DNA from: a virus | Length of the DNA stretch: 64,000 nucleotides | Virus record (IMG/VR): IMGVR_UViG_3300025111_000052 | Span: 88,035-152,034 of that record | Reading direction: 5' to 3' (one strand) | In this document: positions 42,429 through 42,768 of the stretch, piece by piece | Position numbering within the stretch: position 1 is the first letter of the stretch | Layout of the letters: every line of letters starts with the position of its first letter | Position numbers and translations under genes: made by a program | Notes under the pieces: generated by a model | What the model was told of the DNA's origin: nothing | The model's database searches: none | The model's input: the letters and a program-made list of their open reading frames with translations, nothing else

Positions 42429-42507
42429 ATGTCCGGAAGGAAAAACATAGTCAGTAGTTTGGTTTCATAAGCGTGAAGTAACTGAACTATTACACCATTC
42501 CAGACAT
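42429..42507 (-). ncRNA. candidate Y-like RNA 3 (79 nt)
   Basis: ATGTCTGGAA and TTCCGGACAT form a 10-bp closing stem (one G-U). It is followed on the 5' side by TGGTGTA and on the 3' side by TTTTTCC, and then an inner helix, ATAGT(T)CAGT with ACTGACTAT. The segment TACTTCAC follows the inner helix. The same order of elements is seen in candidates 1 and 2. It ends 36 bases before the coiled-coil gene on the same strand. Confidence 0.6.
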
Positions 42508-42520
42508 AGGGTTAACAAAA

Positions 42521-42602
42521 TAAAGCCATAAAGGAAAACCGTACTCAGCATTTTTTCCATTTTCGAGTGAAGTAACTGAGAACTACACCATTTACAGCTT
42601 TA
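42521..42602 (-). ncRNA. candidate Y-like RNA 2 (82 nt)
   Basis: TAAAGCTGTAAA pairs with TTTATGGCTTTA over 12 bp (two G-U). The asymmetric internal loop again has TGGTGTA on the 5' side and TTTTCC on the 3' side. The inner helix is CTCAG/CTGAG, followed by TTACTTCAC, and the remaining loop is A-rich. It is homologous in layout to candidates 1 and 3. Confidence 0.6.
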
Positions 42603-42615
42603 AGCTTAAAAAGAA

Positions 42616-42768
42616 TTATTGCATAAAGGAAAGGCGTAAAGAGTCTTTTTTGTGCCAGTCGATCTACCAGTCTGATCTACTAACCACTATGTGGTTAGGC
42701 GGGGTTTGAACCCGCGGCCTACTGGTTATGGTATGAAGTATCTCTATACTGCACCATTTATGCAATAA
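42616..42768 (-). ncRNA. candidate Y-like RNA 1 with a circularly permuted tRNA module (YrlA-like)
   Basis: A 12-bp closing stem (TTATTGCATAAA/TTTATGCAATAA), the TGGTGCA and TTTCC loop strands, and an inner helix GTATAGAG/CTCTTTAC (one T-T mismatch) match candidates 2 and 3. Beyond it lies a complete tRNA core in permuted order (42655-42725): CCAGT, 5-nt variable loop, T-arm GCGGG-TTCAAAC-CCCGC, acceptor CTAACCA, loop CATAG, acceptor TGGTTAG, TA, D-arm GATC-AGACTGGTA-GATC, G26, ACTGG. All spacings are canonical; the acceptor ends are joined and the anticodon loop is replaced by the Y-like stem. This is the topology described for bacterial YrlA Y RNAs. Confidence 0.8.

What the first reader, a model, noticed from the sequence alone, without database searches (positions are those of the whole stretch)
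42429..42768. Family of three paralogous RNAs sharing an unusual internal loop
Three adjacent elements each have a 10-12 bp closing stem of different sequence, then TGGTGYA on the 5' strand opposite TTTCC/TTTTCC on the 3' strand, then an inner helix of different sequence, then (T)TACTTCA. The stems keep pairing while their sequences differ, which is the covariation expected of functional RNA. The conserved loop could be the Ro60-binding or processing site, and it differs from the published bacterial Y RNA consensus as I recall it. Only one of the three carries the tRNA module.
Basis: seen in the sequence. Interest (0 to 1): 0.9.

Follow-up and report, generated by a model that had tools for sequence, protein, structure and literature searches.

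The report
Phage Y RNAs beside Ro60 gene
This phage carries three small folded RNAs beside a gene for a Ro60-like protein, and all three share a short signature that sits next to Ro60 genes in over a hundred other phages and bacteria, so they are almost certainly its partner 'Y RNAs', a known kind of RNA.

Summary
Three elements (C 42617-42767, B 42522-42601, A 42429-42507) lie on the minus strand, just upstream of a minus-strand Ro60/TROVE gene (40724-42109). Each has an outer stem, a bulged U, GG paired with CC, an internal loop (UGYA opposite a U-rich strand), an inner stem, then UACUUC. Only C carries the tRNA-like module.

The loop is not peculiar to this phage. The signature (U)GGYGHA-N9-UACUUC ... 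UUCC occurs 359 times on the Ro60 strand and twice on the other strand, in 145 of 168 Ro60 loci of phages and bacteria; 65 of those loci have both short and tRNA-bearing copies. A covariance model built without window sequences finds A and B as the only hits in 64 kb. On viral contigs picked by DNA pattern alone, its hits fall on exactly the six that encode Ro60.

Best reading: they are Y RNAs of the phage's Ro60, the signature is the Ro60-binding site, and C also tethers an effector through its tRNA mimic. Binding and expression are untested. Y RNAs near Ro60 in bacteria and phages are already known. Rfam's YrlA model misses A and B and scores C below threshold.

In passing: crAss-like phages carry the same stem inside normal-order tRNAs.

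The parts
42617..42767 (-). Element C: Y RNA with tRNA-like module. Outer stem 42757-42767 / 42617-42627 (11 bp), bulged U 42756, GGUGCA 42750-42755, inner helix 42742-42749 / 42636-42643, UACUUC 42735-42740, 3' loop strand GCCUUUCC 42628-42635
   Evidence: Rfam YrlA 34.9 bits E=1.2e-5, below gathering 69; MFE z -4.4
42661..42715 (-). tRNA-like module of C: T arm GCGGG-UUCAAAC-CCCGC (42699-42715), acceptor-like hairpin CUAACCAC-AUA-GUGGUUAG (42680-42698), D-arm-like GAUC-AGACUGGUA-GAUC (42661-42677), in permuted order
   Evidence: sequence; YrlA alignment; not called as tRNA by ARAGORN
42522..42601 (-). Element B: short Y RNA without tRNA module. Outer stem 42591-42601 / 42522-42532 (11 bp), GGUGUA 42584-42589, inner helix 42576-42583 / 42541-42548, UACUUC 42569-42574, 3' strand GGUUUUCC 42533-42540
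   Evidence: (R1 E=1.7e-7); no Rfam match
42429..42507 (-). Element A: short Y RNA without tRNA module. Outer stem 42498-42507 / 42429-42438 (10 bp), GGUGUA 42491-42496, inner helix 42482-42490 (one bulged U) / 42447-42454, UACUUC 42475-42480, 3' strand GUUUUUCC 42439-42446
   Evidence: R1 E=4.5e-6; z -3.1; no Rfam match
40724..42109 (-). Ro60/TROVE protein gene, 461 aa, with a DxSGSM (vWA-type) motif near the C-terminal part
   Evidence: Pfam PF05731 58.2 bits; profile hits solved TROVE 9l5y/9kop E 3e-44, RO60 9nen, Ro 1yvp, Rsr 2nvo
42130..42393 (-). Small ORF (87 aa) between element A and Ro60, unknown function, no Pfam match

Best explanation
The three elements are Y RNAs that partner the phage's own Ro60 protein. 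The shared part (outer stem, bulged U, GG/CC pairs, UGYA internal loop, 8-bp inner stem, UACUUC) is the Ro60-binding end. Because its two helices are free to vary while the loop is fixed, the protein probably reads the loop and the helix geometry. C carries a permuted tRNA mimic at the far end and probably tethers a second factor to Ro60 (in Deinococcus this is PNPase) or lures a tRNA-handling enzyme. A and B lack that module and most likely occupy and gate the RNA-binding surface of Ro60. Shown here: structure, conservation, strand and genomic linkage to Ro60. Inferred: Ro60 binding, transcription, effector identity and the gate/tether roles.
For: Linkage: 359 elements on the Ro60 strand against 2 on the other strand in 145 of 168 Ro60 loci, 337 upstream and 22 downstream of the gene. 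Reverse test: among viral contigs chosen by DNA pattern only, the RNA model hits 6 (100 contigs scanned) and tblastn finds Ro60 in exactly those 6 of all 116. Pairing: with the 3' arm chosen by pairing alone, 107 of 123 arms carry UUCC at one fixed place, against 0-2 of 3-18 in swapped and 0 of 7-15 in shuffled controls. Covariation on 46 sequences: 95.5% of cells paired (57.9 shuffled), score 0.973 against 0.209, 16 of 18 pairs changed on both sides. Window elements found by a model that holds none of them. Ro60 identity of the adjacent gene. C resembles YrlA. In Listeria phage CKA15 highly transcribed ncRNAs lie within 2 kb of an Rsr-like gene and were proposed to be Y RNAs (PMC12282133).
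Against: No binding or transcript data for this phage. C scores below the YrlA gathering threshold (34.9 of 69 bits) and A and B match no Rfam family. The arms in the covariation alignment were selected for pairing, so that score is partly by construction. The phage record encodes no recognisable PNPase-type RNase PH domain or RtcB (the record may be a fragment), so any PNPase partner would have to be the host's.
Confidence: 0.85

Rival explanations
1. The elements are cis-acting leader structures of the Ro60 message: Ro60 binds its own 5' leader and represses its own synthesis (autoregulation), and no free small RNA is made.
For: 337 of 359 elements lie upstream of Ro60 on the same strand; in the window they lie directly upstream with only a small ORF between.
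Against: 22 elements lie downstream of Ro60. Each is a closed hairpin, often with a complete tRNA-like module, which a simple operator would not need. Related phage RNAs near an Rsr-like gene are abundant transcripts (PMC12282133).
Confidence: 0.08
2. The conserved loop is a processing site for a host or phage nuclease, or the site of another RNA-binding protein, and Ro60 binds elsewhere.
For: The loop is conserved in sequence while the flanking helices vary, which fits any sequence-specific binder or nuclease; the three copies are packed tightly, as in a processed precursor.
Against: The association with Ro60 genes is nearly perfect in both directions, so the reader of the motif must travel with Ro60.
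Confidence: 0.06
3. Chance hairpins or decayed tRNA copies without function.
For: B's folding energy alone is near chance (z -1.9), and the region holds other tRNA-like sequence.
Against: Three motif matches in 340 nt against 0.15 expected in 64 kb; the external covariance model hits at E 1.7e-7 and 4.5e-6; conservation across phyla.
Confidence: 0.01

Closest known systems
YrlA, Y RNA-like RNA (Rfam RF02553; Salmonella rsr-yrlBA-rtcBA operon)
   Same: Encoded next to Ro60/Rsr; long stem closing the molecule; C has the T arm, acceptor-like hairpin and D arm in the same permuted order.
   Different: Stem sequence: Rfam-type YrlA has GGCGAAUGC ... UUGUCGCC (L295-L297) and is not hit by the present stem model; the window class has GGYGHA-N9-UACUUC ... 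UUCC. A and B have no tRNA module. C is below the family threshold.
Y RNAs reported near Ro60 in bacteria and phages (Chen et al. 2014, RNA 20:1715; content recalled, paper not held; cited in PMC12282133 for diverse bacteria and mycobacteriophages)
   Same: Several Y RNAs per Ro60 locus, at least one with a tRNA-like domain; phages included.
   Different: Whether that survey already shows the GGYGHA/UACUUC/UUCC signature could not be checked here.
Deinococcus radiodurans Y RNA-Rsr-PNPase (RYPER)
   Same: Works like: Ro60 tethered through an RNA to an effector. The window Ro60 profile reaches Rsr 2nvo.
   Different: No PNPase in the phage record; Deinococcus Y RNA sequence not compared.
Vertebrate Y RNAs
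   Same: Helix, internal loop/bulge, helix at the Ro60-binding end (from memory).
   Different: Sequence motif not the same as recalled; not tested by alignment.

Membership tests
Bacterial/phage Y RNA (as a kind) | Encoded next to a Ro60/TROVE gene | tested here: met
   Ro60 gene 40724-42109, elements at 42429-42767
Bacterial/phage Y RNA (as a kind) | 5' and 3' ends pair into a long stem with a conserved Ro60-side motif | tested here: met
Bacterial/phage Y RNA (as a kind) | Binds Ro60 | not testable with these tools
   only genomic association shown
Bacterial/phage Y RNA (as a kind) | Expressed as a discrete small RNA | not testable with these tools
   no transcript data for this phage
YrlA (Rfam RF02553) | tRNA-like module with T loop, D loop and acceptor-like hairpin in permuted order | tested here: met
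   C only: 42661-42715; A and B have none
YrlA (Rfam RF02553) | Reaches the family's gathering score of 69 bits | tested here: not met
   C 34.9 bits; A and B no match
YrlA (Rfam RF02553) | Stem of the Rfam class (CGAAUGC ... UUGUCG) | tested here: not met
   window stem is GGYGHA-N9-UACUUC/UUCC; R1 does not hit L295-L297

The most novel reading that the evidence does not exclude
The GGYGHA/UACUUC/UUCC stem is a Ro60-subfamily-specific binding code, separate from the Rfam YrlA class, carried by a large uncatalogued RNA family. Phages place this one Ro60-binding head on different bodies: short gates (A, B), permuted tRNA mimics (C) and, in crAss-like phages, normal-order tRNAs in which the Y stem stands where the anticodon arm should be.
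Probability: 0.35. Interest if true: 0.6.

Novelty: new member of a known kind. Interest (0 to 1): 0.42.

Why it matters
It finds many RNAs that Rfam misses, flags wrong tRNA calls in phage genomes, and gives an exact site to mutate to test how a phage Ro60 recognises its RNAs. It also makes testable why many loci carry both short and tRNA-bearing copies.

Tried and rejected
Nucleotide search of the 1-kb RNA region against phage genomes: no match. Single-protein search for Ro60 relatives in viral contigs returned only near-identical records; the profile search gave 80. R1 with filters off on the small region added only chance-level hits and did not recover C. An automatic scan for permuted Y stems in all loci was ambiguous because tandem copies put a neighbour's 3' arm upstream, so permuted cases were judged only in the crAss loci by eye and folding. 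Papers that define bacterial Y RNA consensus structures were not held. RtcB and RNase PH/PNPase genes: none in the phage record. Divergent Ro60 loci of Halogranum virus (L318), one uncultured huge phage (L319) and Streptomyces phage Quantum (L320) gave no significant R1 hit, so the signature may be limited to the Ro60 subfamily related to the window's; R1 also does not score the AGUGUA variants of crAss-like phages L313, L316 and L317, so a missing R1 hit is weak evidence of absence.

Full report
What was checked. The window is part of a 152-kb phage record. The three elements of the finding are on the minus strand, directly upstream of a minus-strand gene for a Ro60/TROVE protein at 40724-42109 (PF05731; profile matches to solved Ro60 and Rsr structures). 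Only a small unknown ORF (42130-42393) lies between.

Anatomy. Each element has an outer stem (C 11, B 11, A 10 pairs), one bulged U, GG paired with CC, an internal loop of UGYA opposite six nucleotides, an inner helix of about 8 pairs, then U/A-UACUUCA. The helices differ in sequence between copies and still pair. A and B end in short loops (20 nt between UACUUC and the inner 3' arm). The 5' motif occurs three times in the window, all here; 0.15 expected.

Is it general? Ro60 relatives were collected from named phages, viral contigs and bacterial genomes. The strict motif GG[TC]G[TC]A-N9-[TC]ACTTC appears again and again in the gaps beside Ro60, in Xanthomonas, Brevundimonas, Caulobacter and crAss-like phages and in contigs assigned to Acidobacteria, Desulfobacterales, Clostridiales and others: 127 on the Ro60 strand against 2 on the other, about 0.6 expected over all sets. 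With a relaxed motif and a pairing 3' arm the count is 359 against 2, in 145 of 168 loci; 337 upstream and 22 downstream of Ro60; 65 loci hold both tRNA-type and short copies. The window's arrangement is therefore typical.

Controls. The 3' arm was sought by pairing alone at fixed geometry, with no sequence asked of it: 107 of 123 arms carry UUCC in the expected place, against 0-2 of 3-18 when downstream sequences are swapped between loci and none of 7-15 when they are shuffled. On 46 such sequences 16 of 18 pairs change on both sides and the covariation score is 0.973 against 0.209 in shuffles; since arms were chosen for pairing, this is partly by construction. A covariance model from these sequences, none from the window, finds B (E=1.7e-7) and A (E=4.5e-6) as the only hits in 64 kb and in the whole 152-kb record. 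As a reverse test, viral contigs pulled out by a DNA pattern were scanned: the model hits six of the 100 scanned, and tblastn finds Ro60 in exactly those six of all 116. Two of the six are records of the window's own phage.

Relation to known families. Rfam's YrlA matches C at 34.9 bits, half its gathering score, and A and B not at all. The best YrlA hits in a sample of 299 genomes (L295-L297, 58-71 bits) have a different stem, GGCGAAUGC ... UUGUCGCC, which the new model does not hit. So there are at least two stem classes and Rfam represents the other one. The general kind, Y RNAs beside Ro60 in bacteria and phages with at least one tRNA-like copy, is known (Chen et al. 2014, from memory; paper not held; cited for bacteria and mycobacteriophages in PMC12282133). 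Whether that paper already shows this signature could not be checked.

How it most likely works. From the association, the signature is the Ro60-binding end (inferred). In Deinococcus, Y RNA tethers Rsr to PNPase (PMC8394870 and PMC7790460). By analogy C would tether an effector through its tRNA mimic, and A and B would gate Ro60 without an effector. The phage record has no RNase PH-type PNPase or RtcB, so an effector would come from the host. Abundant ncRNAs near an Rsr-like gene have been measured in Listeria phage CKA15 (PMC12282133), which supports expression of such RNAs in phages generally but not in this one.

A side result. In crAss-like phages of the Asinivirinae (crAss001 L128 4624-4769 and 4880-5020; cr106_1 L129 4540-4680; cr112_1 L317 near 4855) and a related contig (L314 near 4378) the Y stem sits inside a tRNA whose arms are in normal order, in the place of the anticodon arm, capped by a small hairpin. 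Folding pairs the inner helices (three examples), the helices differ and still pair between examples (by eye), and Rfam calls the first one a tRNA at 46.6 bits. The overall folding energies of these hybrids are not better than shuffles (z -0.1 to -1.7). This would be a circular permutation of the YrlA layout. It was followed only in part.

Verdict. The elements are Y RNAs with high confidence as a class, but the loop is a widely shared signature and not a peculiarity of this phage. Binding, expression and effector remain to be tested.

Noticed in passing
L128 4624-4769 and 4880-5020 (crAss001); L129 4540-4680 (cr106_1); L314 near 4378; L317 near 4855 (cr112_1): The Y stem (AGUGUA/GGUGUA, inner helix, UACUUC) sits inside a normal-order tRNA in place of the anticodon arm, capped by a small hairpin: a circular permutation of the YrlA layout. 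Inner helices pair in each example.
   Followed up: partly
L121 2811-2885 (GenBank tRNA-Ser, Brevundimonas phage Gurke); L122 2785-2855 (ARAGORN tRNA-Asn, Xanthomonas phage Olaya): tRNA calls that overlap Y RNAs: they begin beside the GGYGYA motif and end in the T arm of the tRNA-like module, so they are probably wrong calls.
   Followed up: partly
window 42777-42877 (-): Very stable hairpin of about 18 bp (UGUAUGGUC...GACCAUACA) with an inner stem AUAACGG/CCGUUAU, z -5.8, directly upstream of element C; no significant family match and no Y motif.
   Followed up: no
window 42888-42958 (-): Cloverleaf-like sequence GGGGAUA...UAUCCCC with a possible GCA (Cys) anticodon and an odd T loop; not called by ARAGORN or Rfam.
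   Followed up: no
window 3407-3477 (+): tRNA with CUA anticodon (ARAGORN labels it Pyl); possible amber-suppressor tRNA of the phage.
   Followed up: no
window 43429-44832 (-): CCA-adding enzyme-like gene (PolyA_pol, PolyA_pol_RNAbd, HD) next to the RNA region; could mature the tRNA-like RNAs.
   Followed up: no
L211 (contig labelled Candidatus Micrarchaeota, 4.9 kb): Carries a Ro60 56% identical to the phage's and a Y stem hit; possibly a misbinned phage contig.
   Followed up: no
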